Source: Ferruginibacter sp.
GTDB lineage: Bacteria > Bacteroidota > Bacteroidia > Chitinophagales > Chitinophagaceae
Direction: 5' to 3'
Length of the DNA: 32,941 nt
Assembly: GCA_025359625.1 (NCBI GenBank)
Contig: JANYFT010000177.1
Span: 1 to 32,941 of the forward strand
Shown: one piece after another, positions 17,913-32,400 of the stretch
Layout of the letters: each line of letters opens with the position of its first letter
How positions within the stretch are numbered: position 1 is the stretch's first letter
The notes under the pieces: model-generated
Database searches by the model: none
The model's input: the letters and a program-made list of their open reading frames with translations, nothing else
Told to the model about the DNA's origin: nothing
Program-made: the position numbers and the translations under genes

Positions 17913-20549
17913 ATGAACCTTAATAATTTCACCATAAAGGCGCAGGAAGCTATTACACAATCCCAACAACAGGCTTTTAATAATAAAAACCCCAATATAG
18001 AAACAGAGCATTTACTAAAAGCGTTATTAAGTGAAGAGGATTCGCCTATTGATTTTTTGTTGAAGAAAAATAATGTGAATGTGAATTTTGTAGAAACCAA
18101 AATTGACGAAAGCATTAATAAACTTCCAAAAGTGCAGAGCGGAGAGTCAGCACAATCGGTAAGCCGTGACATGAATAGTGTGGTTTTGAGGGCTACTGTC
18201 GCACTAAAAAATTTTGGAGATGAGTTTGTGAGTGTAGAATATTTATTGCTCGCTATTTTACAGGGTAATGATAATAGCGCCAAGTTGCTAAAGGATGCAG
18301 GTTTAACAGAAAAAGGTTTAATTGCCGCTATTAAAGATCTTCGTAAAGGCAGTACTATTTCTTCTCAAACAGACGAAACACAATTTAATGCGCTGAACAA
18401 ATATGCAAAGAATTTAAACGAAATGGCGAGAGCAGGAAAACTGGATCCTGTTATAGGACGGGATGAAGAGATTCGCCGGACATTGCACATTTTGTCAAGA
18501 AGAAGTAAGAACAATCCCATTTTAGTAGGAGAACCAGGTGTTGGTAAAACAGCTATAGCAGAAGGTTTGGCGATGCGGATAGTAAATGGTGATGTGCCCG
18601 AAAATTTAAAATCAAAAATAATTTTTGCCTTGGATATGGGCCAGCTAATTGCCGGTGCCAAGTACAAAGGAGAGTTTGAAGAAAGATTAAAATCGGTGGT
18701 AAAAGAAGTGGCCGGAAGTGATGGGGATATCATTTTATTTATAGATGAAATACATACACTGGTAGGTGCTGGCGGTGGTGATGGTGCAATGGATGCGGCC
18801 AATATTTTAAAACCAGCTTTGGCAAGAGGAGAGTTAAGGGCAGTGGGTGCAACCACTCTAAATGAATACCAGAAATTCTTTGAAAAAGATAAGGCATTGG
18901 AACGTCGTTTTCAAAAAGTAATTATTGATGAACCCAGTGAGGAAGATGCCATTTCTATACTCAGGGGTTTAAAAGACAGGTACGAAAGTTACCATCATGT
19001 GTTGATAAAAGACGAAGCCATTATTGCTGCGGTAGAATTGTCTCATCGTTATATTACAGATCGGTTTTTACCGGATAAGGCTATTGATTTAATTGATGAA
19101 AGTGCCGCCAAGCTTAAGTTAGAGATGAACTCTATGCCGGAAGAGCTGGATAAACTGGAAAGACAGATCCGGCAATTGGAAATTGAGCGGGAAGCAATTA
19201 AGCGGGAAAATGATACGGCTAAATTGAAAGACCTTAATACAGAAATTGGTAACCTGTCGGTACAGCGTGATACCTTTAAAGCAAAATGGCAGCAAGAAAA
19301 AGAAGTGGTGGAAAAAGTTCAGTCTGCAAAAAGTGAAATAGACAATTTAAAAACGGCTGCAGAAAAAGCAGAGAGAGAAGGGGATTATGGGCGTGTTGCA
19401 GAAATAAGATATGGCAAGGTGCAGGAACAGGAAAAAATAATTGAAGAACAAACAAAATTGCTGGATGATATCAGCGAAAAACGTTTGCTGAAAGAAGAAG
19501 TAGATGCGGAAGATATTGCTCAAAGTGTTGCTAAAGCCACTGGCATTCCGGTAATGAAAATGTTGCAAAGTGAAAGAGAAAAATTATTGCACCTGGAAGA
19601 AGAATTACATAAAAGAGTTGTAGGCCAGGATGAAGCCATTGAAGCCGTAAGTGATGCCATCCGCAGAAGCAGGGCCGGTTTGCAAGATCCTAAAAAGCCA
19701 ATTGGTTCGTTTATATTTTTGGGCACCACCGGTGTAGGCAAAACGGAACTGGCAAAAGCATTAGCCAATTATTTGTTTGATGATGATAGTATGATGACGA
19801 GAATTGATATGAGCGAATACCAGGAAAAACATTCTGTGAGCAGGTTGGTGGGTGCACCTCCTGGCTATGTTGGTTATGATGAAGGAGGCCAGCTTACAGA
19901 AGCCGTTAGGCGTAAACCTTATAGTGTTGTCTTATTAGATGAAATTGAAAAAGCGCATCCCGATGTGTACAATGTTTTACTACAGGTATTGGATGATGGC
20001 AGGTTAACAGATAATAAAGGAAGGGTAGTTAATTTTAAAAATACTATAATCATTATGACCAGCAACATGGGAAGCCATATTATACAGGAAAATTTTGAAA
20101 AGGTTAATGATAACAATAAAAATGAAGTTGTTGAAAGCACCAAGGCCGAGGTTATAAGTTTATTACGCCAAACCATTCGTCCTGAGTTCTTAAACAGGAT
20201 TGACGAAGTGATCATGTTTCAGCCATTAATGAAAAAAGAGATAAAAGGTATCATTGGCATACAATTGGCTAATCTAAAAGAACTTGTTGCTAAAAGCAGT
20301 ATTCAACTAGAATTTAGTGAATATGCTATAGATTACCTCGCCGAAAACGGATATGACCCTCAATTTGGGGCAAGGCCTTTAAAAAGGTTGATTCAAAAAG
20401 AAATAATTAACCCGCTCAGCAAACACATATTAGCCGGGGATATTGATAAATCAAAGCCAGTTTTGATAGATGTTTTTGATGGAGTTGTAGTATTTAGAAA
20501 TGAAGCTATTAAGGAAAGGAAAGAGGAGAAAGCTCCAAAGGTTAGTTAA
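17913..20549 (+). CDS. clpB: ATP-dependent chaperone ClpB
   Basis: An 878-residue Hsp100 disaggregase. The N-terminal Clp repeat domain spans about 1-145. The first AAA domain has Walker A GEPGVGKT at 206-213 and Walker B 'ILFIDE' at 274-279. The middle coiled coil at about 405-525 ('ELDKLERQIRQLEIEREAIK') is diagnostic of ClpB rather than ClpA/C. The second Walker A is GTTGVGKT at 604-611, followed by 'VVLLDEIEKAHPDVYNVLLQ'. It rescues aggregated protein together with DnaK. No CIRCE-like inverted repeat is visible in the 200-base upstream gap. Confidence 0.98.
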   Translation: MNLNNFTIKAQEAITQSQQQAFNNKNPNIETEHLLKALLSEEDSPIDFLLKKNNVNVNFVETKIDESINKLPKVQSGESAQSVSRDMNSVVLRATVALKNFGDEFVSVEYLLLAILQGNDNSAKLLKDAGLTEKGLIAAIKDLRKGSTISSQTDETQFNALNKYAKNLNEMARAGKLDPVIGRDEEIRRTLHILSRRSKNNPILVGEPGVGKTAIAEGLAMRIVNGDVPENLKSKIIFALDMGQLIAGAKYKGEFEERLKSVVKEVAGSDGDIILFIDEIHTLVGAGGGDGAMDAANILKPALARGELRAVGATTLNEYQKFFEKDKALERRFQKVIIDEPSEEDAISILRGLKDRYESYHHVLIKDEAIIAAVELSHRYITDRFLPDKAIDLIDESAAKLKLEMNSMPEELDKLERQIRQLEIEREAIKRENDTAKLKDLNTEIGNLSVQRDTFKAKWQQEKEVVEKVQSAKSEIDNLKTAAEKAEREGDYGRVAEIRYGKVQEQEKIIEEQTKLLDDISEKRLLKEEVDAEDIAQSVAKATGIPVMKMLQSEREKLLHLEEELHKRVVGQDEAIEAVSDAIRRSRAGLQDPKKPIGSFIFLGTTGVGKTELAKALANYLFDDDSMMTRIDMSEYQEKHSVSRLVGAPPGYVGYDEGGQLTEAVRRKPYSVVLLDEIEKAHPDVYNVLLQVLDDGRLTDNKGRVVNFKNTIIIMTSNMGSHIIQENFEKVNDNNKNEVVESTKAEVISLLRQTIRPEFLNRIDEVIMFQPLMKKEIKGIIGIQLANLKELVAKSSIQLEFSEYAIDYLAENGYDPQFGARPLKRLIQKEIINPLSKHILAGDIDKSKPVLIDVFDGVVVFRNEAIKERKEEKAPKVS

Positions 20550-20802
20550 TTTGAAGTTATTTAATTTTTTAAAAAAAAATTAAGTAATTGGTTTTCAGCG
20601 TTGTGGATAATCTGTTAGCGAAAAATTCTTAAATGGTAAGTGAAAAAAGCATAAAAATATTACCTTCAACGGATTCCCAATGTTTTTGATTGCATATAGT
20701 AAAAATAATTACAACAATTGCTATCAGAAATTGTTATTAACACAAGTCATAGGCTAACAAAGCAATTGGGGTTATGGCATACAAATAAATATATTATATA
20801 TT

Positions 20803-21372
20803 ATGGCATTTAAAAAAGAGGTTGTTGAAATTATTGAACCAAGAGATGTATTTGTCGGAGATATCAACGCTCCGGTAACATTAGAAGAATTTGGAGAATA
20901 TGAAAGCGAAGTGTGTGCAAAAGCTAACGAAGTAGTAAAACAATTGTTAGAAGAATATGATGGGAAGGTGCGTTTTAATTTTCGTCATTTTCCGATGACG
21001 AACATTCACCAGCGTAGTTTAAAAGCAGGCGAAGCTGCAGTGGCTACTGCACAGGATGGCAAATTCTGGGAAATGCACAATATACTTTTTGCCAATCGCA
21101 GAAATCTTGGTACAACCAGTTTAAAGTTGCATAGCAGGGAAGCAGGTGTTCAAAACAAGCGTTTTTTGGACGAACTTGTAAATGCAACTTACGGATGGCA
21201 GGTACAGGGAGATATGCGGGAAGGCATAAACCGAGGCGTAAAAGATGTTCCAACGTTTTTTATAAACGGAGAACGGTTTACCGGCAAAGTAACTTATGAT
21301 GAATTAAGTAAAGCTGTAGAAGATGCTTTAAAAAAGGTGAAGAAAAAAGTTCCGGCAAAAGTAAAAGCATAA
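20803..21372 (+). CDS. Cytosolic DsbA-like thioredoxin-fold protein with a single cysteine
   Basis: A 189-residue protein of the DsbA family without a signal peptide, so likely cytosolic. 'GDINAPVTLEEFGEYESEVC', 'GKVRFNFRHFPM', 'GKFWEMHNILF' and the cis-proline 'VKDVPTFFINGERFTG' (P150) all match the family. In place of the usual C-x-x-C it has S35-E-V-C38, and C38 is the only cysteine in the protein. It cannot form the normal active-site disulfide. It may be a monothiol oxidoreductase, a glutathione-linked enzyme, or a binding protein. A terminator follows directly. Confidence 0.87.
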   Translation: MAFKKEVVEIIEPRDVFVGDINAPVTLEEFGEYESEVCAKANEVVKQLLEEYDGKVRFNFRHFPMTNIHQRSLKAGEAAVATAQDGKFWEMHNILFANRRNLGTTSLKLHSREAGVQNKRFLDELVNATYGWQVQGDMREGINRGVKDVPTFFINGERFTGKVTYDELSKAVEDALKKVKKKVPAKVKA

Positions 21373-21374
21373 AT

Positions 21375-21407
21375 AAAAAGCCCCAATAAAATTTATTGGG
21401 GCTTTTT
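21375..21407. terminator. Bidirectional intrinsic terminator
   Basis: AAAAAGCCCCAATAAA (21375-21390) pairs perfectly with TTTATTGGGGCTTTTT (21392-21407). The GC core is flanked by A and T tracts on both sides, so it works in both directions. It lies between the convergent DsbA-like gene and the amidoligase cluster. Confidence 0.93.
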
Positions 21408-21422
21408 ATATAACAGTAAATC

Positions 21423-22415
21423 CTATTTTACAGATCCAGTACCAATTACTAAGTGTTCTAAATTCTGTTCATCAAAATATAATTTACAGGTAGCTGCGGC
21501 CTGGTTAAGCAATAGTTCCAGCGTTGGTTGTTTGGTACCCAATAACTGGTAAGCTTTTTTGCAGGTTGCTGCGTCTGCCAGGTTCGTGGTTTGTTGAAGT
21601 GCTTCTTTAACAGCAATTACATACAAGCCTTTGTCTTTTATCTTTCCCAGTTCTGCAATCATCCAGCTAAGGGCATAAAAATAATGCTGTTCAAGCAACA
21701 AAAAATAAGTAGCATCACCTGCATCTGGCATTTTGTTAAAGGCAGAAGTAGTTATTTCTTTTGTTAGATATTTTACCAAATATTTTGGAACGGTTTTATT
21801 TTTGCTTAGTTGAATGCTGCCCTGTATTGCCTGTGGGTAGATGCTTAACCAGCGAAGCTTGCGCCTAAGTTCATGCACATCTGCTTCTATGTTTTTAAAA
21901 TTGCATTTATCTGTATGCACAAATTCAGTGATATCTAAAATTGCTTCCCCATAAAATTCATTGATCGCTTTTATTTCATCCTCTTCTTTTAGCCAATCTG
22001 CTTCAGCTAATTTTTTTTGTATTTTTTTAATACGGCCGTTATCTGCTGAAAGCCATTCTTGCTCAACCAAAATCTCATTAAGACTCTGTATTTTTTCTCT
22101 TGTTTGTGCCTGTAAATAATTGGTAACTGTGGACGGTATTTTTTTATTGGCGCTGATACCTTTTGCAATGTTATCATAATAATCAATGGCGCCTAATGTA
22201 TCTTCCAATAATTTAAACTGTTCTTTCAATTTGGTAAATTTCTTTTTATTATGAATTTGGGTGTACATTTTTGCCAGGCTTTCCAGCATAAATAAAGGTG
22301 TACGGCCATCATTATTATAGAGCCATAATGCAGGGTTTTTTTGTTTAGATGCTTTGTTAAATAGTAGTTGTAATTTGTTTAAATAGTAATCAAATCTTGC
22401 TAGTCCTTTTATCAT
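21423..22415 (-). CDS. CHAD-like helical protein, last gene of the amidoligase cluster
   Basis: A 330-residue, largely helical, cytosolic protein without an assigned name. Two parts resemble CHAD-domain repeats: 'EQFKLLEDTLGAIDYYDN' (about 65-82) resembles the 'L.d.LG..rD' segment, and 'DVHELRRKLRWLSIYPQAI' (179-197) resembles the 'vH..RkalKrLRy' segment with its basic residues. CHAD proteins bind inorganic polyphosphate. The match is by eye and could be wrong. It starts 57 bases after the second ATP-grasp gene, so it belongs to the same transcript, and ends just before the shared terminator. Confidence 0.6.
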   Translation of the reverse strand: MIKGLARFDYYLNKLQLLFNKASKQKNPALWLYNNDGRTPLFMLESLAKMYTQIHNKKKFTKLKEQFKLLEDTLGAIDYYDNIAKGISANKKIPSTVTNYLQAQTREKIQSLNEILVEQEWLSADNGRIKKIQKKLAEADWLKEEDEIKAINEFYGEAILDITEFVHTDKCNFKNIEADVHELRRKLRWLSIYPQAIQGSIQLSKNKTVPKYLVKYLTKEITTSAFNKMPDAGDATYFLLLEQHYFYALSWMIAELGKIKDKGLYVIAVKEALQQTTNLADAATCKKAYQLLGTKQPTLELLLNQAAATCKLYFDEQNLEHLVIGTGSVK

Positions 22416-22472
22416 CTTTACAGTTTTTATCAGTTAATAATAAAGTTTTAAAGTTATAAGTGTGATTAATTT

Positions 22473-23663
22473 TTACCGCTCAAAGAAAGCCACGCTACTT
22501 CCAACCCAGTCTTTATCTTTGTTATAACGGGTACCAATCATCTTACCTTTACTTAGTCTAGCTAAATTATGTACAGCCATTGGTCTTGCCCATTCTTTTT
22601 TCCAAAAATAAAATAGCCTGATTTCCGCTTTTGCAGGCATGTTGGGGGTTTCAATCACATCTGCATATTTCACCTTTCGCTGCAATATCCAGTTTTCGGG
22701 ATCTGTTACTTTGTCAATATCTTCTTTGGTAACATCAATAATTACGCCCATGCCCGCAAAGGAAAACAAAGGCTTTAATACATAATTTTCAAGATCGGCA
22801 GGTATTTCCTTTAGCTCGTTTAAATAAAAGGTTGGAGGCACATAAGGATTATCTATCAGTGGTAAAGTATATTTACTGATGCGGTAAAACCAGTTGGGAT
22901 GTGGTCTCCATTCTACTTCCCAGGGATGTGTAATGTCGATGATATCCCCTAGGTTTTTTTGTTGATGCAGGTCATCAAAAATAAGCCGGTTATAAATTCT
23001 TTTTACCTGTATTTTTTTTCCATCTTTTTCATAAAATAATTGATTCCCTTCACCAATCAATTTGGTAAGACAAACAGTTTTTATGCCCAGCACATCTTCG
23101 GTACAATAAAAATCAACCCTTGTTTTTTGTTGCTCCGGATAAATTTCCAAAAGGATAACATTTTCCGTATCACAATCTCCTGCAATGATCTCTTTTAATA
23201 ATTGCAGGTAAGAAGCTTCTGTGTAACCATTTAAATAGGCATCATAAGTGGATGGTACGTTAGCATACACTTTTGTAATGGCTGTATGAAATGCCTGAAA
23301 TGCAAATAGGGTAGGGAATCCCTGCATTTCAATAAGTTGCGGTTCCAGCGTGCCGTTGCTATTTTCGCAGATACCAAAATCAAAAGCAATAAATTCTGCA
23401 TGATCATTTTCATTGGCTACAATAATGTCTTTTGGGATGGCTTTTTCGGTAAGTGCTTTAAAATTAGGGTCAACTATTATATCAATAATATCTTCGCAGG
23501 CATCCAGCATTTTTTGGGTAAAATCTTTGGGAATAAAGATTGGGGTTTCAGCATTTCTAAATTCCAGGGTTCCGGGATGGAGGTTTTCCAATTCCTGTAT
23601 GTAAAGAGCATATTTTTTTTCCGTAAAATTGTTGTTAAACGTACGTCTTAATTCTTTCTGCAT
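22473..23663 (-). CDS. Divergent ATP-grasp-like ligase
   Basis: A 396-residue cytosolic protein that looks like a divergent ATP-grasp enzyme of the glutathionylspermidine-synthase/circularly permuted type. Supporting segments are 'VKRIYNRLIFDDL' (220-232), 'NYVLKPLFSFAGMGVIIDV' (293-311, the ATP-binding lysine and glycine loop), 'WILQRKVKYADVIETP' (325-340) and 'AEIRLFYFW' (346-354). These enzymes join a carboxylate to an amine through an acyl phosphate. The substrate is unknown. It follows the amidotransferase gene after an 83-base gap holding a palindrome. The assignment is from motif order only. Confidence 0.7.
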   Translation of the reverse strand: MQKELRRTFNNNFTEKKYALYIQELENLHPGTLEFRNAETPIFIPKDFTQKMLDACEDIIDIIVDPNFKALTEKAIPKDIIVANENDHAEFIAFDFGICENSNGTLEPQLIEMQGFPTLFAFQAFHTAITKVYANVPSTYDAYLNGYTEASYLQLLKEIIAGDCDTENVILLEIYPEQQKTRVDFYCTEDVLGIKTVCLTKLIGEGNQLFYEKDGKKIQVKRIYNRLIFDDLHQQKNLGDIIDITHPWEVEWRPHPNWFYRISKYTLPLIDNPYVPPTFYLNELKEIPADLENYVLKPLFSFAGMGVIIDVTKEDIDKVTDPENWILQRKVKYADVIETPNMPAKAEIRLFYFWKKEWARPMAVHNLARLSKGKMIGTRYNKDKDWVGSSVAFFER

Positions 23664-23682
23664 ACTAATTGTGATTGATAAT

Positions 23683-23712
23683 ATTATTATGATTAAAAAT
23701 AATCATAATAAT
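23683..23712. promoter_or_regulatory. Perfect 13-bp palindrome in the leader of the second ATP-grasp gene
   Basis: ATTATTATGATTA (23683-23695), AAAA, TAATCATAATAAT (23700-23712) is a perfect inverted repeat ending about 20 bases before ATG 23663. It could be an operator, an mRNA hairpin masking the start, or a processing site. No T run follows, so it is not a standard terminator. Confidence 0.6.
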
Positions 23713-23746
23713 CGTACCATACTATCAACAAAAAGTAATTGTACTG

Positions 23747-24583
23747 CTAAGTTTGTAAACTTTGTACTGCTGTCTGCAAAAAATTTGGCAGAACATGCTC
23801 GTAAGTAAATATTATTTTATCAGGGTCATTTAACTGTTCAATCATACTGGTCCATTTTTCTTTGCCGTAATTTTCAATCACAGTTTTCTTTTTTTCTGTT
23901 GTTTGAAGGTACATACTCATACCAACTGCGTCAGCTTCGGGATGAAACTGTGTACCAATCATGTACTCATTAAAACGCACCGCCATAATTGCTCTTTCCA
24001 ACTGAATATGTGGCCGTTCTTTTTCTATAGCTAAAATGGTAGCACCCATTTCAAGTAAATTATTATGCCTGGGTTCAACAACCTGGTAGTCCCTGCTATC
24101 TACTGCATAAAATGGATCTTTCATTTCCTCAAATACAATTTCTTCTTTTCCATCTTTTAAAAGGTGAACAGGAAAAACGCCAAACGATGTGCTTTTGCGT
24201 TGACATACGCTTCCAATATTATAATGCCTGCAGGCTAATTGAAAAGAGTGGCAGATAAAGAATACATATTTTTTTTGAACATTGCCTTCGCTGTTATTCC
24301 ATTTTTCTATTTTATGCAACCACTTGAAATATACTTTTTCCCATTCGCTGCCTTCACTATCTAAAGGGCTGCCCGGGCCACCGCTTGAAATAAAAATATC
24401 ATACGAAAGATCGGGTACTTCTTTTTTTTGCCGTACATCAAATTCATCCCAGGTGATGTCTAAGTTGTTACCATCACCAAACTGGTTTAATATTTCCCTG
24501 ATGCACCGCATTCCCTGGTTTGCCACACCTTCGTACAAATCAAGGATGGCTATCCGGAATTTCTTTTTTTCTAATAAGGACAT
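23747..24583 (-). CDS. Class I glutamine amidotransferase-like protein
   Basis: A 278-residue protein with the class I (Triad) glutamine amidotransferase fold. The oxyanion strand is 'ISSGGPGSPLD' (65-75), the nucleophile is C111 in 'FICHSFQLA', and His214 with Glu216 in 'GTQFHPEAD' completes the triad. It normally hydrolyses glutamine and passes ammonia to a synthase. No synthase domain is fused. Between the GCS2-type ligase and an ATP-grasp gene, it may feed ammonia to one of them, or act as a gamma-glutamyl peptide hydrolase, which shares the fold. Confidence 0.88.
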   Translation of the reverse strand: MSLLEKKKFRIAILDLYEGVANQGMRCIREILNQFGDGNNLDITWDEFDVRQKKEVPDLSYDIFISSGGPGSPLDSEGSEWEKVYFKWLHKIEKWNNSEGNVQKKYVFFICHSFQLACRHYNIGSVCQRKSTSFGVFPVHLLKDGKEEIVFEEMKDPFYAVDSRDYQVVEPRHNNLLEMGATILAIEKERPHIQLERAIMAVRFNEYMIGTQFHPEADAVGMSMYLQTTEKKKTVIENYGKEKWTSMIEQLNDPDKIIFTYEHVLPNFLQTAVQSLQT

Positions 24584-24839
24584 GAAGCAAAAATAATAAT
24601 TTTAATTCAGATAGATTTTGTGAGGGTAAAATTGGATATGATATGGCTATAAATTTAAAAAAATATTTCGTTTTTTAAGTTGAATGCGCCTTCATATACG
24701 TTTCCATAAAAGTTGCCATGAAAATATATAGTACAAGAGTGCGATCCGCCGCGGCAGACAAGTTGCCAATGAAGCGTTATTGAAAAATTGAAGTTCGGGC
24801 AATAATAAAAATTTAGGATCAAATTATTATATCCTGAAT

Positions 24840-25952
24840 TTATATGCCCGCTAAAAAATTACCCTGTATATAATCTACCACATCAACAAGGCTATTGGTT
24901 TGTTCAAATACCTTCAATTGTCTGTCGGCACCGGTGCCCTGCTCCAGCATATTGTGTACATAATTAACGGCATGGCGGCTGCCCAGTTGCGGCACCACAT
25001 CGTCAATAAAATCTAGTAGCTCATAAATTAATACCCTGGTGTTAACCTCGGTTTCTTTACCAAAGTCAATCATGCTGCCATCAATGCCATAACGGCTGGC
25101 ACGCCATTTATTTTCGTTTATTAGTGCCCGTGAGTAGGTCATAAAATTCAGGTTTTGGCTACGTAATTTATATAGCTTTGCACACAATCCCTGAAAAAGT
25201 GCCGCAATAGCAATGGTTTCCTGCACGGTCATGGGTATATCGCAAATACGAAACTCTACTGTATTAAAAAAAGGATGTACCCGAAGGTCCCACCAGATTT
25301 TTTTTGCATTGTCTATGCAATTTGTTTTTACCAGCAGCTTTATATAATTCTCATACGCTTCTATACTTTCAAAATAATCGGGTATGCCGGTACGGGGAAA
25401 TTTATCAAATACTTTTGTGCGAAAAGATTTATACCCGGTTTTTCTACCTTCCCAAAAAGGGGAGTTGGTGCTGAGTGCATAAATATGTGGTAAAAAGTAT
25501 CGGGCTGAGTTGGCAATATGAATGGCCATCTCTCTGTTTTCCATGCCCACATGCACATGTAGCCCAAAAATAAGATTGCTCCTTGCAGCTTCCTGTAATT
25601 CGTTTACAATTTCGTTATAGCGTGCATGGTCGGTTATTAATTGGCTTTCCCAATGGCTAAAGGGATGGGTACCCGAAGCGCCTAATTTTAAACCCAAACT
25701 TTCGCCGATACCGCTGATCGTTTTACGTAGGGTAGAAACATCTATAAACGCTTCATCAATATCCTGGCAAATATCTGTGCCAACTTCTACAACTGCCTGG
25801 TGCATTTCTGCCTTAACTTTGTCTTTAATTAATTTCTGGCCTTCCTGAACAATTTTTTGTTCATGGCTTTTCAATTCCCTTGTTACAGGATCAATTACCA
25901 TGTATTCTTCTTCTACACCAATTGTAAAACCTTTGTATGATATGTTAGCCAT
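24840..25952 (-). CDS. Carboxylate-amine ligase, GCS2/YbdK family
   Basis: A 370-residue GCS2 (glutamate-cysteine ligase 2, YbdK) family enzyme. 'FTIGVEEEYMVIDPVTREL' (9-27) holds the family's acidic cluster, 'MHQAVVEVGTDIC' (50-62) and 'LIFGLHVHVGMENREMAI' follow, then 'SNSPFWEGRKTGYKSFR' and 'HPFFNTVEFRICDIPMTV'. YbdK has weak gamma-glutamyl-cysteine ligase activity and the natural substrates of many members are unknown. No glutathione synthetase is adjacent, but a RimK-like ATP-grasp gene is directly upstream. The start codon sits next to an AT-rich repeat tract. Confidence 0.92.
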   Translation of the reverse strand: MANISYKGFTIGVEEEYMVIDPVTRELKSHEQKIVQEGQKLIKDKVKAEMHQAVVEVGTDICQDIDEAFIDVSTLRKTISGIGESLGLKLGASGTHPFSHWESQLITDHARYNEIVNELQEAARSNLIFGLHVHVGMENREMAIHIANSARYFLPHIYALSTNSPFWEGRKTGYKSFRTKVFDKFPRTGIPDYFESIEAYENYIKLLVKTNCIDNAKKIWWDLRVHPFFNTVEFRICDIPMTVQETIAIAALFQGLCAKLYKLRSQNLNFMTYSRALINENKWRASRYGIDGSMIDFGKETEVNTRVLIYELLDFIDDVVPQLGSRHAVNYVHNMLEQGTGADRQLKVFEQTNSLVDVVDYIQGNFLAGI

Positions 25953-25954
25953 GT

Positions 25955-26035
25955 TAATTGATAATTTATGAAAAGTAATTGATAACTTATAAAAAGTAAT
26001 TGATAATTTTTTAATTGATAATTGATAATTTTTTT
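25955..26035. repeat. TAATTGATAA repeat tract before the GCS2 gene
   Basis: The decamer TAATTGATAA, or close variants, occurs at least four times: two 21-bp units (25955-25975, 25976-25996) followed by shorter units to 26035. It lies immediately upstream of ATG 25952, so it is in the leader of the GCS2 gene. Some frames through it look like coding ('NYQLLF' repeats), but that is only the repeat. Confidence 0.8.
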
Positions 26036-26185
26036 AAAATCGAAGCAGGCCCTTCTTTTGAAATACTTCATTTTTTGAAGATTATTTTCTAACGAAAAAT
26101 CCATTAGTTTGATAATACAGGGTGATAAAAATTGTTAAGCTTTTCAGGTTAGACTTTTATACATTATCCTTATAAAAATTATCCA

Positions 26186-27139
26186 TTAAAAAAGCTTTTG
26201 CTTTGCAGCAGAGCGTTTAATATACTCACCCCAGGTTAAATTATCTTGTCCGTCTTTTTGTTCCAGTGCTTTTTCTATTGCGAATGTAGCGGCGGTCTCT
26301 ACCACCCATTCAAAATTTTCTTCGCCCACACTTGCTCTTTCTGCATCTGGTGCAGGGTTGCAAAAATCAATAGCGTATGGAATTCCATCTTTTAACGCTA
26401 ACTCAACGGTATTAAAATCGTAGCCTAAATAATGGTTGATACGCAGCACTATATCCGTCATTAAGCTTGTCCTTTCTTCATCCGGTTTAAAATCGGCTAT
26501 ATAACGAAGCGCATGTGGATTGCGGGGTTCATAAGGCATGATCCTTACATATTTACCACCAATACAATAACAGCGATAGTATTCGTCAAAAATTATTTCT
26601 TCCTGCAACATCATAACCAGTTCCCCGGTTTGATTGTGTTTTTCAAAAAAATCTTGTTTATCTGTTAGCTTGTAAACACTCTTCCAACCCCCGCCGGCAA
26701 AAGGTTTCATGTATGCCGGAAAACCAACATAATTAAAAATACCTTCCCAGTCTAACGGGTAGGCAAGGTTGCTGAAAGAATCACCGGTTGTATCAACTGG
26801 TAAAGAATTAGAAGGTAAAATAACCGTTTTTGGTACTGGAATATTTATTTTAGTGGATAAACAATTATTGAAAAATTTTTCATCTGCACTCCACCAAAAG
26901 GGGTTGTTAATTACTGCGGTACCACACAAAGCGGCATTTTTTAAATAAGCCCTATAAAAGGGTACATCCTGCGATATACGGTCTATAATAACAGCATAGC
27001 CACTACCTTCACCCTGCATAATTTTATCTATTTTCACCGGCTCTGCAATAATGCCTTCTATGTTTTTACTGTTTACCCTTTCAACAAAAGCTTCCGGAAA
27101 ACTTCTTTCTTTGCCATTTAAAATTCCTATTTTTTTCAT
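26186..27139 (-). CDS. RimK-like ATP-grasp ligase, first gene of the amidoligase cluster
   Basis: A 317-residue ATP-grasp enzyme of the RimK/glutathione-synthetase-like group. ATG 27139 (MKKIGILNGKERSFPEAF) is preferred over 27193, which adds 18 residues with no conservation. The ATP lid 'PAYMKPFAGGGWKSVYKL' is at 141-158, 'MLQEEIIFDEYYRCYCIGG' at 177-195, and 'DFNTVELALKDGIPYAIDFC' then 'NP' carry the metal ligands (E246, D258, N261). It would activate a carboxylate as acyl phosphate and couple it to an amine. As the first minus-strand gene, its promoter must lie in the 200-base gap shared with the esterase. Confidence 0.88.
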   Translation of the reverse strand: MKKIGILNGKERSFPEAFVERVNSKNIEGIIAEPVKIDKIMQGEGSGYAVIIDRISQDVPFYRAYLKNAALCGTAVINNPFWWSADEKFFNNCLSTKINIPVPKTVILPSNSLPVDTTGDSFSNLAYPLDWEGIFNYVGFPAYMKPFAGGGWKSVYKLTDKQDFFEKHNQTGELVMMLQEEIIFDEYYRCYCIGGKYVRIMPYEPRNPHALRYIADFKPDEERTSLMTDIVLRINHYLGYDFNTVELALKDGIPYAIDFCNPAPDAERASVGEENFEWVVETAATFAIEKALEQKDGQDNLTWGEYIKRSAAKQKLF

Positions 27140-27327
27140 AATTATATTTTTAGTAACAGAATGATTAATTGAAAAACTTTTTTGAAAATGCATCCTAACC
27201 GGATAGGATTTTTTTGTCTGTAATTTACCAAATAATACTTCAATGTTGATAAAATCAGGATGTATATTTTATTGAAGGCAAATAAAAAATGGTGTATTTA
27301 ACTACATAAGTTTACACCGCTTTTACT

Positions 27328-27335
27328 TATTTTTG
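27328..27335 (+). promoter_or_regulatory. Possible -7 box of the esterase gene
   Basis: TATTTTTG fits TAnnTTTG but lies only 5 bases before ATG 27341. If it is real, transcription starts at about that ATG and the true start may be ATG 27365. No -33 TTTG is at the right distance. Confidence 0.3.
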
Positions 27336-27340
27336 ACCTT

Positions 27341-28162
27341 ATGCCACAAGCGAATACAGCGTGTATGATTATAAAGAATCACGTAATTAAATCGGTTTTT
27401 TTAAAGCGGGATGTTATTATAGATTGTTATTTACCCCACAGTGAAATGGATACTGCCAATGTAAATTTGTTATTAATTAACGATGGACAAGATTTGGTGG
27501 CCATGCAATTTGAAAAGATTTTGCTTAAACTTTATCAACAAAAAACCATTACACCTTTATTATGTGTAGGCCTCCATTGCGGTGCGGACAGAAGAAATGA
27601 ATACGCCACTGCAAAAATAACAGATTACAAAGGCCGTGGATCAAAAGCTGCCTTATATACAAGGTTTGTTTTTGAGGAGTTGTTGACCTTTATCCGAAAA
27701 ACATATCCTGTATTTTGTTTTAAAGAAAAATCTTATGCCGGGTTTTCTTTGGGTGGATTAAGTGCACTGGATATTGTTTGGAATAATGCAAATGAATTTA
27801 CTAAAGTGGGTGTGTTTAGCGGTTCATTTTGGTGGAGAGATAAAGACCAGGATGCCCTGGATTTTGATGAATCAAAAAACCGCATTATGCACCGGCAGGT
27901 AAGAGAGGGTGACTATGCACCATGGCTGCAATTTTTCTTTGAAGTAGGTACACAGGATGAAACTGCCGACCGCAATAATAATGGTATCATTGATGCCATT
28001 GATGATACCATTAGTTTGATTGATGAATTAAAACAGAAAGGCTACAGCGGCAACGATATTAAATACCTTGAGTTAAAAGATGGAAGGCACGATGTATCCA
28101 CATGGGGAAGGGCTTTTCCTGCATTTTTAGAATGGGGGTGGGGGAGGCAAGGTAGTAAGTAA
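27341..28162 (+). CDS. Esterase-family alpha/beta hydrolase (Fes/esterase D type)
   Basis: A 273-residue cytosolic hydrolase of the Fes/esterase D family (PF00756). The nucleophile is S136 in 'YAGFSLGGLSALD' and the catalytic histidine is H250 in 'LKDGRHDVSTWGRAFPAFL', with the acid probably near 206 in 'EVGTQDETAD'. A short 'DRNNNGIIDAIDDT' (210-223) follows and looks like a calcium loop. There is no signal peptide. It diverges from the amidoligase cluster and probably acts on the same product, for example cleaving or activating an ester. ATG 27365 is an alternative start. Confidence 0.85.
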   Translation: MPQANTACMIIKNHVIKSVFLKRDVIIDCYLPHSEMDTANVNLLLINDGQDLVAMQFEKILLKLYQQKTITPLLCVGLHCGADRRNEYATAKITDYKGRGSKAALYTRFVFEELLTFIRKTYPVFCFKEKSYAGFSLGGLSALDIVWNNANEFTKVGVFSGSFWWRDKDQDALDFDESKNRIMHRQVREGDYAPWLQFFFEVGTQDETADRNNNGIIDAIDDTISLIDELKQKGYSGNDIKYLELKDGRHDVSTWGRAFPAFLEWGWGRQGSK

Positions 28163-28298
28163 TAAATATTTAGTAGTGAGAAAAATCCGTAATATCCAGG
28201 TCTGTTAAGGCTTTCGTAAAGATAGTATGATTGCAAAACCTTGCTTTTTTATAATAACCTATAAATAAAAGTGGCTGTCGCAATAGTAATAATTTGTG

Positions 28299-29669
28299 CT
28301 ACAAACTCATCTCAGTAAAATATTTATGAAAATAAGGAATGGTTTCTATGCCTTTATAAAAATTCTCCAGGTTAAATTTTTCATTGGGGCTGTGCAGGTT
28401 ATCGCTGTCTAAACCAAAACCCATAAATACTATTTTAATGCCCAATTCTTTTTCAAATAAAGCACAAATAGGGATGCTGCCACCACCTCGTACCGGGATG
28501 GGTTTTTTACCAAAAGTTGTTTCCATAGCTTTTGCTGCAGCCCGGTAAGCTTTGCTGTCTATCGGTGTCATGTAGGGTTCGCCACCATGGTGTTCAAAGG
28601 CACTAACGGTAACGTTTGGGGGCGCAATTTTTTTAAAGTGTTCCAGCAGCATCGCCGTAATTTTTAAAGACGATTGATTGGGCACCAACCGTGTAGAAAT
28701 TTTTGCAGTTGCCTTGCCGGGTAATACTGTTTTAGCGCCTTCGCCCTGGTAACCACCCCAAATGCCATTCAACTCTAATGTGGGCCGTATGCCGGTTCTT
28801 TCATTAGTGCTGTACCCCTTTTCGCCCCATAATTCTTTTATGCCAAGGTCATTTTTATATTCTTGCTCATCAAAGGGAGATTCGGCCATTAGTTTTCTTT
28901 CTTCTGCAGTGGCAATCACTACATCATCATAAAATCCGGGGATGGTAATATGGTTATTTTCATCATGGCAACTGGCAATCATTTTAGCCAGCATCGTAAT
29001 TGGGTTGGCAACGGCGCCACCATAAACGCCACTGTGTAAATCACGGTTGGGGCCTGTTACAGTTACTTCAATATAACTAAGGCCGCGTACGCCAATATCA
29101 ATACTCGGTGTTTCTAAACTAATCATGGCAGTATCACTGATCAATACAACATCTGCTTTTAATAATTCCTTGTGGGTCTCTACAAATTTGCCCAGGTTAG
29201 GTGAGCCTACTTCCTCTTCGCCTTCAATACAAAATTTAATATTATTGGTAAGGGTGTCGGTTTGAATCAATGTTTCCAAAGCCTTAATGTGCATGTACAC
29301 CTGACCTTTATCATCGCAACTGCCACGAGCAAAAATTTTACCGTCAATAATTACGGGGTCAAAAGGGGCGCTGTGCCATAGTTCCAGAGGCTCAACAGGT
29401 TGCACATCATAATGTCCATATACCAGCACTGTTGGCTTATCAGGATCAATGATTTTTTCTGCATATACAATTGGATGGCCGTCTGTTGGATAAATGGTTG
29501 CTTTATCAACACCAGCCTCCACTAAACGTTGCTGTACTGCTGCTGCACATTTAACCATATCCTCCTTATTTTCGCTTTTGGCACTTATGCTTGGTATCCG
29601 CAACAACTCGAGTAGTTCATTTAAAAAACGGTCTTTATTTTTATCCTGGTATTCATTCCAAACTTGCAT
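28299..29669 (-). CDS. M20 family dipeptidase
   Basis: A 456-residue metallopeptidase of the M20 family (dipeptidase, carnosinase-like). H86 and D88 in 'VYGHYDVQP', D119 in 'RGSCDDKGQ', E151/E152 in 'EGEEEVGSPN' are the zinc ligands and catalytic acids, and 'LHSGVYGGAVANP' belongs to the dimerisation domain. No signal peptide, so cytosolic. It hydrolyses dipeptides or small peptides. It is next to a cluster of peptide-bond ligases, but on its own transcript and facing the esterase, so a shared pathway is only suggestive. Confidence 0.93.
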   Translation of the reverse strand: MQVWNEYQDKNKDRFLNELLELLRIPSISAKSENKEDMVKCAAAVQQRLVEAGVDKATIYPTDGHPIVYAEKIIDPDKPTVLVYGHYDVQPVEPLELWHSAPFDPVIIDGKIFARGSCDDKGQVYMHIKALETLIQTDTLTNNIKFCIEGEEEVGSPNLGKFVETHKELLKADVVLISDTAMISLETPSIDIGVRGLSYIEVTVTGPNRDLHSGVYGGAVANPITMLAKMIASCHDENNHITIPGFYDDVVIATAEERKLMAESPFDEQEYKNDLGIKELWGEKGYSTNERTGIRPTLELNGIWGGYQGEGAKTVLPGKATAKISTRLVPNQSSLKITAMLLEHFKKIAPPNVTVSAFEHHGGEPYMTPIDSKAYRAAAKAMETTFGKKPIPVRGGGSIPICALFEKELGIKIVFMGFGLDSDNLHSPNEKFNLENFYKGIETIPYFHKYFTEMSL

Positions 29670-30170: not shown

Positions 30171-30917
30171 TCAAATACTGTTAAACCTTTCTCCAACTGT
30201 ATTCCAATTTAATATCTTCCAAAAACTGGCAATATAATCTGCACGGCGGTTTTGGTATTTAAGATAGTAAGCATGTTCCCACACATCCAAACCAATTAAA
30301 GGAAAGCCTTTCGCTTCGGCAATATCCATTAAAGGATTATCCTGGTTGGGTGTTGAGATGACCGATAATTTTTTATCATTGGAAAGTATAAGCCACGCCC
30401 AGCCACTTCCAAACCTTGTTGTAGCGGCAGTTGTAAATTGTTTTTTAAATTCATCCAGCGAACCAAAACTTGCTGTAATGGCAGTTAGTAATTTAGCGGT
30501 TGGCTGTGTACTGGTGTCGGCAGATAATTGTTTCCAGAATAATTCGTGGTTATAATGGCCACCTGCGTTGTTACGCATTTTTCCAGAATATTTAGAAATT
30601 TTGCTCAATACATCTTCCAGTGGTTTAGTAGTATCCACACTTTCTGCAAGTGCTGCTTCTTTTACATTTTTACTGTAAGCTGCCGCATGTTTATTATAAT
30701 GAATATCCATGGTTAAAGTATCAATCGAAGGCTCCAGTGCATTATAGGCATAAGGCAATGGTTGTTGATCAAAACCTGTTTTAAAAGGGGAAGGGGTAGC
30801 GGTATGTAAAGTACTTCCCGTTTCTAATATTGCACCAAGGGTGGGTAATGCAATTAAAGTTCCAATGCCAGCTATTGCAGATTGCCCGATAAAATTTCTA
30901 CGTGTTGACTGTTTCAT
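30171..30917 (-). CDS. Fe/Mn superoxide dismutase with export leader
   Basis: A 248-residue Fe/Mn superoxide dismutase. The metal ligands H73 (in 'MDIHYNKHAAAY'), H124 ('NHELFW'), D211 and H215 ('DVWEHAYYL') are all present. The first 40 or so residues are extra, starting MKQSTRRNFIGQSAIAGIG: a twin-arginine motif plus hydrophobic stretch, so export by the Tat pathway is likely. Exported Fe/Mn dismutases are less usual than cytosolic ones. It lies 31 bases after the LptF/LptG-type permease gene and may be in the same operon. Confidence 0.93.
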   Translation of the reverse strand: MKQSTRRNFIGQSAIAGIGTLIALPTLGAILETGSTLHTATPSPFKTGFDQQPLPYAYNALEPSIDTLTMDIHYNKHAAAYSKNVKEAALAESVDTTKPLEDVLSKISKYSGKMRNNAGGHYNHELFWKQLSADTSTQPTAKLLTAITASFGSLDEFKKQFTTAATTRFGSGWAWLILSNDKKLSVISTPNQDNPLMDIAEAKGFPLIGLDVWEHAYYLKYQNRRADYIASFWKILNWNTVGERFNSI

Positions 30918-30948: not shown

Positions 30949-32400
30949 CTATTTCTTACGGTTCATTATATTAACAATTGGTTTAAAAAAAGGCCTGAGA
31001 CTTTTAAAAAACCGGTAATAAAATTCTTTATTAAATAACGCTGAATCATGCATGGCTTTATAGGTTAGAAAAATACCCAGGGGTGTTAATATCAGCACAG
31101 CCAGCCACATACCAACAAAAGGTGTAGCGATATTTTCTTTTATAAATTTTTCACCAAACATATTCAGCAGGTGAAAAATAAGAAAGAATAAAATAGCCAC
31201 CACCAAAGGCATGCCCAGCCCACCTTTTCGTATGATAGATCCAAGCGGGGCACCAATAAAAAATAATACCAGGCAGGCCAGCGACAAAGAAAATTTGCGG
31301 TGCCATTCAATTAAACCAGAACGTATGCCATCTTTTTTATTATCCATTTCCGAACCGGAAAGCTGGTAGCTGTTTTTAACGTTATACACTACTGCAATTG
31401 CGTTGTCGTAAACCGTATTTTTTACAGAGTCGGGAAGCGATGCTAAAAAGCTGACATTTTTTGTTGCAACTGCTGGTGTCTTTTCCCAGGTACTATCGGG
31501 TAAATTAAGATAGTGAAACTGGGTAGCTACATCTGTATGCAGTTTTTTAGTAAGGCTGTCTCTTTGTTTTTTTAAAGAATCGATTGTTCTGTCCAGTAAT
31601 CGAATGCTCAGCATTTTATAATCATTTTTAAAAACAGTATCCGATGTGTTCATCATTTGCAAAGATGAAATATCAAACAATTTTTTATACTCTGTAAATC
31701 CCATGCGAATAAATTCAGTGCTGGTATCCATCACATTGCCACGTTCCTGGTAGCGATGCCCATTTTGAAGTGTAAACTCAAGGTACTTTTTATCAGCAGA
31801 TAATTTCATGATGCCTTGCTCGGCAATAATGCTGTTGTCCTGTAACTGGCTCTGCTGCTCATATATTACCACCTCATGTATGGTTTTGCCATCCGCATCT
31901 TTTTTACCTATTTTAATGGCATAACCAGGAATATGTTTATAAAAAGTGCCGGGCTTTAAATCAAGTGCCGGTTTCTTGTAGGCAATATCATAATAAATAG
32001 TTTTGAATTTTAAATTGGCAAAAGGAATAACATAGTTGGCAAATAAAAAGGTGATACCACAAAGTAAAACAGTAACCCAAATTAAAGGCCGCATAAAACG
32101 TAACAAAGAGATGCCTGCAGATTTTATGGCCACCAGTTCAAAGCTTTCGCCGAGGTTGCCAAAGGTCATGATTGACGAAATTAGAATTGCTATGGGCATA
32201 GCTAATGTAAGCAGGGAGGCACTTGCATACCATAAACATTGTCCGATGGTAAAAAGGTCAAGGCCTTTGCCGACAAAGTCATCAATATACTTCCATAAGG
32301 TCTGCATCATCAGCACAAAAAAAGTAATGAAGAACGTTCCAACAAAAGGCCCGATAAATGATCTGATAATGAGTGTATCTAATTTTTTCATCATCCCCAA
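30949..32400 (-). CDS. LptF/LptG family permease (YjgP/YjgQ)
   Basis: A 483-residue membrane protein of the YjgP/YjgQ family, the LptF/LptG component that extracts lipopolysaccharide from the inner membrane together with LptB. N-terminal helices include 'FVGTFFITFFVLMMQTLW' and 'MPIAILISSIMTFGNLGES' (about residues 18-82), followed by 'FELVAIKSAGISLLRFMRPL', a landmark of the family. A periplasmic domain of about 200 residues, longer than in enterobacteria, precedes three C-terminal helices. ATG 32400 is used; two further ATGs follow at codons 3 and 4. Which of LptF or LptG it is cannot be decided here. Confidence 0.9.
   Translation of the reverse strand: MGMMKKLDTLIIRSFIGPFVGTFFITFFVLMMQTLWKYIDDFVGKGLDLFTIGQCLWYASASLLTLAMPIAILISSIMTFGNLGESFELVAIKSAGISLLRFMRPLIWVTVLLCGITFLFANYVIPFANLKFKTIYYDIAYKKPALDLKPGTFYKHIPGYAIKIGKKDADGKTIHEVVIYEQQSQLQDNSIIAEQGIMKLSADKKYLEFTLQNGHRYQERGNVMDTSTEFIRMGFTEYKKLFDISSLQMMNTSDTVFKNDYKMLSIRLLDRTIDSLKKQRDSLTKKLHTDVATQFHYLNLPDSTWEKTPAVATKNVSFLASLPDSVKNTVYDNAIAVVYNVKNSYQLSGSEMDNKKDGIRSGLIEWHRKFSLSLACLVLFFIGAPLGSIIRKGGLGMPLVVAILFFLIFHLLNMFGEKFIKENIATPFVGMWLAVLILTPLGIFLTYKAMHDSALFNKEFYYRFFKSLRPFFKPIVNIMNRKK

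What the first reader, a model, noticed from the sequence alone, without database searches (positions are those of the whole stretch)
21423..28162. Amidoligase cluster of unknown product: two ATP-grasp-type ligases, GCS2 ligase, amidotransferase, CHAD-like protein, divergent esterase
Five minus-strand genes with gaps of 57-256 bases and one divergent gene encode enzymes that make or handle amide and ester bonds. The GCS2 and RimK-like ATP-grasp enzymes resemble a two-step gamma-glutamyl peptide synthesis, but no glutathione-pathway gene is present. The amidotransferase could supply ammonia, the esterase could release or load a product. From memory, comparative work by Aravind and colleagues described such amidoligase neighbourhoods as candidates for novel peptide-like metabolites or protein tagging; this exact gene set and product remain unassigned to my knowledge. 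A substrate cannot be read from sequence.
Basis: partly seen in the sequence, partly recalled or inferred. Interest (0 to 1): 0.72.

Follow-up and report, generated by a model that had tools for sequence, protein, structure and literature searches.

The report
Conserved peptide-ligase operon of Bacteroidota
A set of enzyme genes that travels together through many Bacteroidota bacteria looks like an assembly line that builds, and can also take apart, a small peptide-like molecule whose identity could not be read from the sequence.

Summary
In detail: five minus-strand genes (gaps 57, 83, 256, 233 bases) and one divergent gene, 21423-28162. The lower ATP-grasp (22473-23663) has no ATP-grasp match in Pfam, but its predicted fold is that of glutathionylspermidine/glutathione synthetases and YgiC; 26186-27193 is RimK/R2K-like; 24840-25952 is a YbdK/GCS2 carboxylate-amine ligase; 23747-24583 has the class-I amidotransferase fold; 21423-22415 the CHAD fold; 27341-28162 is a PF00756 esterase.

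Order GRASP1-GCS2-GAT-GRASP2 recurs in 26 of 60 named loci, at down to 42% GRASP2 identity. The three ligases occur together in 84 of 296 genomes of the phylum; of the 50 that also have GAT, 20 have the genes split apart. This is one functional system, not a chance neighbourhood.

Best reading: NRPS-independent assembly and turnover of a small peptide amide. GAT is probably a hydrolase, not an ammonia supplier: an M29 peptidase takes its place in five loci, its orthologue occurring in 0 of 46 GAT-bearing genomes examined. CHAD is a lineage-specific add-on. A replacement thiol is unlikely: BshC is in 291 of 296 genomes. Product unknown.

The parts
26186..27193 (-). GRASP1: RimK/R2K-like ATP-grasp ligase (real start probably near 27133)
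   Evidence: NCBIfam RimK family E=6.5e-6, under its cut-off; PF18299 R2K_2 in 10 of 15 family members at E<=0.1, best 7.9e-5; D-Ala-D-Ala ligase by profile, E=0.0025; E264, D276 and N279 invariant in 15 of 15.
24840..25952 (-). GCS2: YbdK-type carboxylate-amine ligase (gamma-glutamylcysteine ligase-like)
   Evidence: NF010039 carboxylate-amine ligase 520.8 bits against cut-off 371; PF04107 E=3.5e-59; E. coli YbdK structure 1r8g E=1.3e-48; only PF04107 match in the held genome, which is 93.6% complete.
23747..24583 (-). GAT: class-I glutamine amidotransferase fold with Cys111-His214-Glu216; probable amide hydrolase (or acyltransferase)
   Evidence: PF00117 in 18 of 18 family members, PF04204 (homoserine O-succinyltransferase) in 5 of 18; Cys/His/Glu invariant in 18 of 18; best PDB profile match homoserine O-succinyltransferase 2vdj E=4.4e-5.
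22473..23663 (-). GRASP2: glutathionylspermidine/glutathione synthetase-superfamily ATP-grasp ligase
   Evidence: AF2 model pLDDT 90; all 21 Foldseek PDB matches with E<=0.001 are GSP/GSS/YgiC/YjfC/Cp1B-type; PF03738 in 14 of 23 members at E<=0.1, best 9.7e-4; YgiC by profile E=0.0083.
21423..22415 (-). CHAD-fold protein, lineage-specific accessory
   Evidence: AF2 pLDDT 93; top six Foldseek matches are CHAD domains, TM 0.50-0.57; in 16 of 61 loci, the window included.
27341..28162 (+). EST: divergent PF00756 esterase
   Evidence: PF00756 E=1.8e-21; enterochelin-esterase model E=1.4e-10, under its cut-off; an esterase divergent from the operon in 22 of the 26 four-gene loci.
27194..27340 (.). 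Intergenic region between the operon and the divergent esterase; no Bacteroidota-type promoter pattern matched here
   Evidence: coordinates; pattern search (2 matches in the window against 3.9 expected, neither in this region).

Best explanation
An NRPS-independent assembly line for a small peptide-like amide, with its own turnover enzymes. Shown by sequence or fold: three carboxylate-amine ligases of different families, a class-I amidotransferase-fold enzyme with an invariant cysteine, and PF00756 esterase(s) form one evolutionary unit. Inferred: the YbdK-like enzyme makes a first (gamma-glutamyl-type) amide bond, the RimK/R2K-like enzyme adds a second unit, and the glutathionylspermidine-synthetase-like enzyme joins the peptide acid to an amine or amino acid. 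The amidotransferase-fold enzyme beside it cleaves an amide of the product or precursor, as glutathionylspermidine amidase or gamma-glutamyl hydrolases do. The esterase(s) remove an ester- or thioester-linked group. The CHAD protein is an accessory of the window's lineage, possibly for localisation on polyphosphate. The substrate is unknown.
For: Order conserved with short gaps or 4-base overlaps in distant families. Co-occurrence in 296 genomes: GRASP1 with GRASP2 89 together, 19 and 3 alone, 185 neither; GRASP2 with GCS2 87, 5, 16, 188; it holds when collapsed to 139 genera. All four genes kept though split in 20 of 50 genomes. Ligase folds. Peptidases join or substitute: an M29 peptidase at the GAT position in five loci, its orthologue (E<1e-120) in 6 of 34 genomes with the ligases but no GAT and 0 of 46 (of 50) with GAT; an M17 aminopeptidase plus a further ATP-grasp near the cluster in L071, L149, L155. 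A circularly permuted ATP-grasp stands between GRASP1 and GAT in L118-L121, whose genomes lack GRASP2, so ligases look like interchangeable parts. A YfiT-like DinB protein sits 20-92 bases from a cluster gene, same strand, in 4 of 140 loci; the one other, weak DinB match is far from the cluster.
Against: No substrate or product is known and no enzyme was assayed. 28 of the 34 GAT-less genomes have neither GAT nor the M29 orthologue, so a hydrolase of these two kinds is not essential. More distant M29 relatives (26-30% identity) occur in 13 GAT-bearing genomes, so only the close orthologue is exclusive. Eight genomes have GRASP1 and GAT without GCS2 and GRASP2, and nine have GCS2 alone. Fisher values ignore relatedness. 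In the YgiC alignment the S-R-E-G of YgiC reads S-F-A-G in GRASP2, so its chemistry may differ; Foldseek TM-scores are only 0.49-0.63.
Confidence: 0.6

Rival explanations
1. The amidotransferase-fold protein is an acyltransferase like homoserine O-succinyltransferase: it makes an O-acyl ester on the product and the esterases take it off again.
For: Best PDB profile match is homoserine O-succinyltransferase, E=4.4e-5, with the invariant Ser163-Arg164 aligned to its Ser192-Arg193; PF04204 in 5 of 18 members; E. coli MetA also lacks the second elbow glycine (C-W-A-V-Q); one or two esterases travel with the cluster.
Against: PF00117 matches 18 of 18 members. The direct profile alignment to E. coli MetA is very weak (probability 2%, E=0.02). 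Replacement by an M29 peptidase at the same position does not fit an ester-forming enzyme. Conservation of other MetA substrate residues was not tested.
Confidence: 0.2
2. The cluster makes a glutathione-like low-molecular-weight thiol that replaces glutathione.
For: GCS2 plus a glutathione-synthetase-superfamily ATP-grasp; a YfiT-like (bacillithiol transferase family) DinB protein beside the cluster in four loci; the esterase weakly matches S-formylglutathione hydrolase (E=0.038).
Against: BshC is present in 291 of 296 genomes, the window's own included, and a bacillithiol derivative is reported from a Bacteroidetes strain (PMC6282198, passages). The three ligases are in 84 of 296 genomes, so the product cannot be the general thiol. 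An accessory thiol stays possible.
Confidence: 0.12
3. One reading: the amidotransferase supplies ammonia to one of the ligases, giving a primary amide.
For: Class-I amidotransferase fold with an invariant Cys-His-Glu set in 18 of 18; in 54 of 61 loci it lies upstream of GRASP2 on the same strand, within 300 bases in 45.
Against: No recognisable synthase partner; atypical elbow; replaced by a peptidase in five loci; far from the ligases in 10 of 50 genomes that keep the three ligases together.
Confidence: 0.1
4. A peptide- or amino-acid-tagging system that modifies a protein or polymer rather than a free metabolite.
For: R2K ATP-grasps are predicted to modify proteins (PMC4431377, passages); RimK modifies a ribosomal protein (recalled); a CHAD domain was solved with polyphosphate (6qva).
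Against: No conserved target gene was seen in the neighbourhoods examined; YgiC, a fold relative of GRASP2, is annotated peptide-spermidine ligase, that is, small-molecule chemistry.
Confidence: 0.12

Closest known systems
Glutathionylspermidine synthetase/amidase (E. coli Gss) and YgiC/YjfC peptide-spermidine ligases
   Same: GRASP2 has their fold. It keeps lysines (Lys264, Lys297, invariant in 23 of 23) that align to Gss Lys498 and Lys533, though that alignment alone is not significant (E=0.16). An amide-cleaving candidate (GAT) is encoded beside it, as the amidase half is fused in Gss.
   Different: Sequence similarity is marginal (YgiC E=0.0083; hhalign E=1e-5). GAT is a class-I amidotransferase fold, whereas the Gss amidase half is of another fold (recalled). 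Two more ligases are present. Glutathione genes were not reported from this phylum in PMC6282198 (passages).
Glutathione biosynthesis (glutamate-cysteine ligase plus eukaryotic-type glutathione synthetase)
   Same: GCS2-superfamily first ligase and a glutathione-synthetase-superfamily ligase.
   Different: GCS2 is of the YbdK/PRK13515 family; cyanobacterial GshA TIGR02048 is under its cut-off (59.7 against 249.05 bits). A third ligase, GAT and an esterase are added, and a bacillithiol gene is present.
E-64 pathway (fungal Cp1B ATP-grasp plus amide bond synthetase)
   Same: Cp1B (9cjn) is among the fold matches of GRASP2, E=2.8e-10; stepwise NRPS-independent amide bonds between an acid, an amino acid and an amine (PMC12568646, passages).
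   Different: None of the six proteins matched an oxygenase or an ANL-type amide bond synthetase.
Amidoligase gene neighbourhoods of Iyer and colleagues (Mol BioSyst 2009; recalled, paper not held)
   Same: Several unrelated peptide ligases linked with peptidases; a variant with a circularly permuted ATP-grasp exists here too (L118-L121).
   Different: Whether that paper lists this gene set could not be checked.
E. coli Puu pathway (gamma-glutamylation, then PuuD hydrolase)
   Same: An amide ligase and a class-I amidotransferase-fold hydrolase in one gene set (the fold of PuuD is recalled).
   Different: PuuA is a glutamine-synthetase-type ligase (recalled); no oxidase or dehydrogenase pair is in the window cluster. 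The GAT profile aligned to PuuD only around the His-Pro-Glu motif (probability 14%).

Membership tests
YbdK/PRK13515 carboxylate-amine ligases (GCS2) | match over the curated NCBIfam cut-off | tested here: met
   NF010039 520.8 against 371 bits; TIGR02050 291.2 against 176.4
YbdK/PRK13515 carboxylate-amine ligases (GCS2) | ATP-dependent gamma-glutamyl ligase activity | not testable with these tools
   needs an enzyme assay
Glutathionylspermidine/glutathione synthetase superfamily (GRASP2) | overall fold | tested here: met
   21 of 21 Foldseek matches with E<=0.001, probability 1.00
Glutathionylspermidine/glutathione synthetase superfamily (GRASP2) | Pfam GSP_synth match | tested here: not met
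   window protein no match; 14 of 23 members match only weakly, best E 9.7e-4 at a 0.1 limit
Glutathionylspermidine/glutathione synthetase superfamily (GRASP2) | ATP-site lysines and KP loop residues | tested here: inconclusive
   Lys264 and Lys297 invariant; YgiC S-R-E-G reads S-F-A-G here; E. coli Gss itself reads G-R-C-G, in a non-significant alignment
Class-I glutamine amidotransferase | family match and Cys-His-Glu | tested here: met
   PF00117 in 18 of 18 members; residues invariant in 18 of 18
Class-I glutamine amidotransferase | G-x-C-x-G nucleophile elbow (motif recalled) and a synthase partner | tested here: not met
   elbow C-H-S-[F/Y]-Q in 18 of 18; no synthase in the window cluster
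Homoserine O-succinyltransferase (MetA) | PF04204 match | tested here: inconclusive
   5 of 18 members, best 2.5e-6; the window member does not match
RimK-type ligase | TIGR00768 cut-off | tested here: not met
   25.7 against 143.4 bits: RimK-like only
R2K ATP-grasp clade | PF18299 gathering score; two conserved RAGNYA lysines | tested here: inconclusive
   window protein 14.9 against 26.2 bits; 10 of 15 members at E<=0.1, best 7.9e-5; lysine pair not checked
CHAD domain | fold | tested here: met
   six best Foldseek matches are all CHAD, probability 1.00, though none with E<=0.001
CHAD domain | Pfam match | tested here: not met
   no CHAD match up to E=1
Known or candidate anti-phage defence system | match to PADLOC models | tested here: not met
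   0 of 6 proteins match at E<=0.01
Circularly permuted ATP-grasp / NTN peptidase tagging system (Iyer 2009, recalled) | circularly permuted ATP-grasp and NTN hydrolase | tested here: not met
   neither matched in the window cluster; a circularly permuted ATP-grasp only in L118-L121
Graspetide RiPP | short precursor peptide gene in the operon | tested here: inconclusive
   gaps of -4 to 59 bases in L056, L064, L073, L074, L076 leave no room between the four genes; the flanks were not screened for short ORFs

The most novel reading that the evidence does not exclude
A conjugation cycle like that of glutathionylspermidine in organisms that use bacillithiol instead of glutathione: a three-ligase line makes an unknown peptide-amine conjugate, and an unrelated hydrolase (GAT, or an M29 peptidase in its place) reverses it. 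It would be an undescribed peptide metabolite made by more than a quarter of the sampled Bacteroidota.
Probability: 0.2. Interest if true: 0.8.

Novelty: new variant of a known kind. Interest (0 to 1): 0.6.

Why it matters
84 of 296 sampled genomes of the phylum carry all three ligases, yet no paper describing this gene set showed in the listings (the most relevant paper, Iyer 2009, was not held). Among the 17 sampled genomes of one genus (g61), two carry all four genes, one carries three and 14 carry none (genus membership). This nearly all-or-none pattern makes gene-loss comparisons and knock-out metabolomics practical. A defined product would add a small-molecule class to a large bacterial phylum.

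Tried and rejected
Thiol replacement: tested with BshC over 296 genomes and rejected as the main reading. Defence: no PADLOC match. Plasmid spread: no record of the plasmid collection matches GRASP2 or GRASP1. RNA or riboswitch: no Rfam match at 20500-28500. Bacteroidota promoter pattern (recalled consensus): no excess, 2 matches against 3.9 expected. A class-III aminotransferase (argD/putrescine-type) lies downstream of GRASP2 in 12 of 140 loci, 9 and 60 bases away in L056 and L064 but 1.4 to 5 kb away in the other 10; taken as neighbourhood. In L035 and L036 the ORF upstream of GRASP2 is membrane-protein-like, CcmB-like by eye only; taken as neighbourhood. The histidine-ammonia-lyase gene touching GRASP1 in L102 was seen in one family only (f73) and was not used. 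Alignments of GAT to single E. coli proteins MetA and PuuD were too weak to decide. Gene-tree congruence was not computed. Presence outside the phylum was not tested, beyond one record titled Ignavibacteria (L066) that carries a variant.
Full report
WHAT IS THERE. Six ORFs at the stated coordinates: 21423-22415 (-), 22473-23663 (-), 23747-24583 (-), 24840-25952 (-), 26186-27193 (-) and 27341-28162 (+). I call them CHAD, GRASP2, GAT, GCS2, GRASP1 and EST. The closest named relatives are Ferruginibacter MAGs (GRASP2 90% identical in L018), so the window is most likely from Chitinophagaceae.

FAMILIES. GCS2: NF010039 carboxylate-amine ligase 520.8 against a cut-off of 371 bits; E. coli YbdK 1r8g E=1.3e-48; one PF04107 match in the held genome. 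GRASP1: RimK family E=6.5e-6, far under its cut-off; R2K_2 in 10 of 15 members at E<=0.1; D-Ala-D-Ala ligase E=0.0025. GRASP2: no ATP-grasp match in Pfam or NCBIfam; 14 of 23 members weakly match GSP_synth; profile match to E. coli YgiC E=0.0083. Its AlphaFold2 model (pLDDT 90) has 21 PDB matches with E<=0.001, all glutathionylspermidine synthetase, glutathione or homoglutathione synthetase, YgiC, YjfC, nematode GSS-like effectors or Cp1B. TM-scores over the query are 0.49-0.63, so the superfamily is clear but the specificity is not. GAT: PF00117 in 18 of 18, PF04204 in 5 of 18; Cys111, His214 and Glu216 invariant. CHAD: no CHAD match in Pfam, no PDB sequence match up to E=10, but the six best fold matches are CHAD domains. 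EST: PF00756.

GENE ORDER. One scan of the genome collection with GRASP2 gave 60 named loci. Counting the window (61 loci), GAT is in 54, GCS2 in 29, GRASP1 in 28, an EST-type esterase in 26 and CHAD in 16. Many loci are short, so these are lower bounds; L032 also shows a CHAD piece at its end. GAT and GRASP2 are on one strand in 54 of 54, within 300 bases in 45. 26 of the 60 have GRASP1-GCS2-GAT-GRASP2 in that order on one strand, with gaps of -4 to 64 bases in L056, L057, L064, L073, L074 and L076 and larger ones elsewhere, up to 3150 in L053. They include Ferruginibacter, Spirosoma, Rudanella, Arsenicibacter, Persicitalea, Telluribacter, Emticicia, Chryseobacterium, Muriicola and Zeaxanthinibacter (record titles). 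A divergent esterase is present in 22 of these 26. In 15 of the 16 that are not Ferruginibacter, an esterase of 234-253 aa on the operon strand precedes GRASP1; the sixteenth, L068, begins near GRASP1. CHAD is in the 10 Ferruginibacter ones only.

CO-OCCURRENCE. In the same 296 genomes of the phylum, at E<=1e-20: GRASP1 108, GRASP2 92, GCS2 103, GAT 70. All three ligases occur in 84: 50 with GAT and 34 without. Other patterns: GCS2 alone 9, GRASP1+GAT 8, GRASP1+GCS2+GAT 7, GRASP1+GRASP2+GAT 4, GRASP1 alone 4, GCS2+GRASP2 2, GCS2+GRASP2+GAT 1, GRASP1+GRASP2 1. Fisher values are 1e-21 to 1e-52 by genome and 5e-9 to 3e-26 over 139 genera; neither corrects for relatedness. An earlier sample of 119 genomes of the class gave GRASP2 in 16, GRASP1 in 18 and GCS2 over its cut-off in 16. 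Of the 50 genomes with all four, 30 have them within 6-kb steps of each other, 10 have the three ligases together and GAT elsewhere, and 10 are split in other ways. In the window's own genus, G196 has GRASP1-GCS2 and GAT-GRASP2-CHAD on different contigs. Retention despite separation is the strongest evidence for a shared function.

SWAPS. At the GAT position between GCS2 and GRASP2, L066, L116, L163, L164 and L165 carry an M29-type peptidase (Pfam for L066 and L116; the others by 64-75% identity). Its orthologue (E<1e-120) is in 6 of the 34 genomes with the ligases but no GAT and in 0 of 46 of the 50 genomes with all four. Five of the six have it beside the ligases and one (G312) has it apart; 28 of 34 have neither. 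More distant M29 relatives (E 9.4e-20 to 2.0e-28) occur in 13 GAT-bearing genomes, and as second copies in G198 and G357. In L118-L121 a circularly permuted ATP-grasp lies between GRASP1 and GAT; their four genomes lack GRASP2, and two of the four also lack GCS2. In L071, L149 and L155 an M17 aminopeptidase and another ATP-grasp lie near the cluster, on the opposite strand in L149; that ATP-grasp is also near it in L120 and L179. A DinB protein matching the YfiT bacillithiol-transferase model under its cut-off (L048) lies 20-92 bases from a cluster gene on the same strand in L048, L053, L157 and L184. In 140 loci of 2.28 Mb the only other DinB match at E<=1e-3 is a weak one in L183 (E=1.2e-5), well away from GAT there; divergent DinB proteins may be missed by this single query.

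MECHANISM. Shown: the parts, their linkage and their substitutions. Inferred: GCS2 makes a first gamma-glutamyl-type amide, GRASP1 a second bond, GRASP2 a bond to an amine or amino acid. E. coli YgiC is annotated peptide-spermidine ligase; YgiC and YjfC are called peptidylpolyamine synthetases in PMC12568646 (passages). GAT cleaves an amide. I prefer the hydrolase to ammonia supply because a peptidase can stand in its place, because no synthase partner was recognised and because its nucleophile elbow is atypical. The MetA-like reading stays open: Ser163-Arg164 and the non-glycine elbow resemble homoserine O-succinyltransferase, though the direct alignments of GAT to E. coli MetA and PuuD are very weak (probabilities 2% and 14%). 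Several ligases with interchangeable members, plus peptidases, point to a peptide-like product, possibly differing between lineages.

THIOL TEST. GCS2 plus a glutathione-synthetase fold suggested a glutathione substitute. BshC is in 291 of 296 genomes including the window's, and a bacillithiol derivative is reported from a Bacteroidetes strain (PMC6282198, passages). So a replacement thiol is unlikely; an accessory thiol or a bacillithiol-linked product is not excluded.

LITERATURE. The listings of searches showed no paper on this gene set. I saw passages of PMC12568646, PMC6282198, PMC2922099 and PMC4431377, and read no paper whole. The paper most likely to mention it, Iyer and colleagues 2009, is recalled and was not held, so I do not claim priority.

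VERDICT. A real, widespread multi-ligase operon whose function I found nowhere assigned; a new variant of the known kind of NRPS-independent amidoligase clusters.

Noticed in passing
window 28299-29669: M20 dipeptidase (PRK08201 equivalog, E=1.3e-174) just beyond the divergent esterase; the block of M20, SOD and the 30949-32400 ORF is kept beside the cluster only in close relatives L019-L024.
   Followed up: partly
L071:1179-5077, L155, L149: M17 aminopeptidase and a further ATP-grasp protein near the cluster; in L071 and L155 on the same strand upstream of it.
   Followed up: partly
L102:7703-10185 and L104: Histidine/aromatic ammonia-lyase gene touching GRASP1 in L102, and next to it in L104, in the dispersed version of the system.
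   Followed up: no
L025, L026, L063, L065, L151: Uma2-family putative endonuclease genes in or beside the operon, twice each in the GRASP1-GCS2 gap of L025 and L026.
   Followed up: no
L185 (G035:C2:501130-502065): A distant GRASP1 relative (E=5.6e-66) in a same-family genome that has no GCS2, GRASP2 or GAT match at E<=1e-20.
   Followed up: no
L007 (G001:C39): A same-class genome with GRASP1-GAT-GRASP2 in a row but no GCS2 match at E<=0.001.
   Followed up: no
window 30171-30917: Fe/Mn superoxide dismutase with a weak Tat-type signal match (E=0.01).
   Followed up: no
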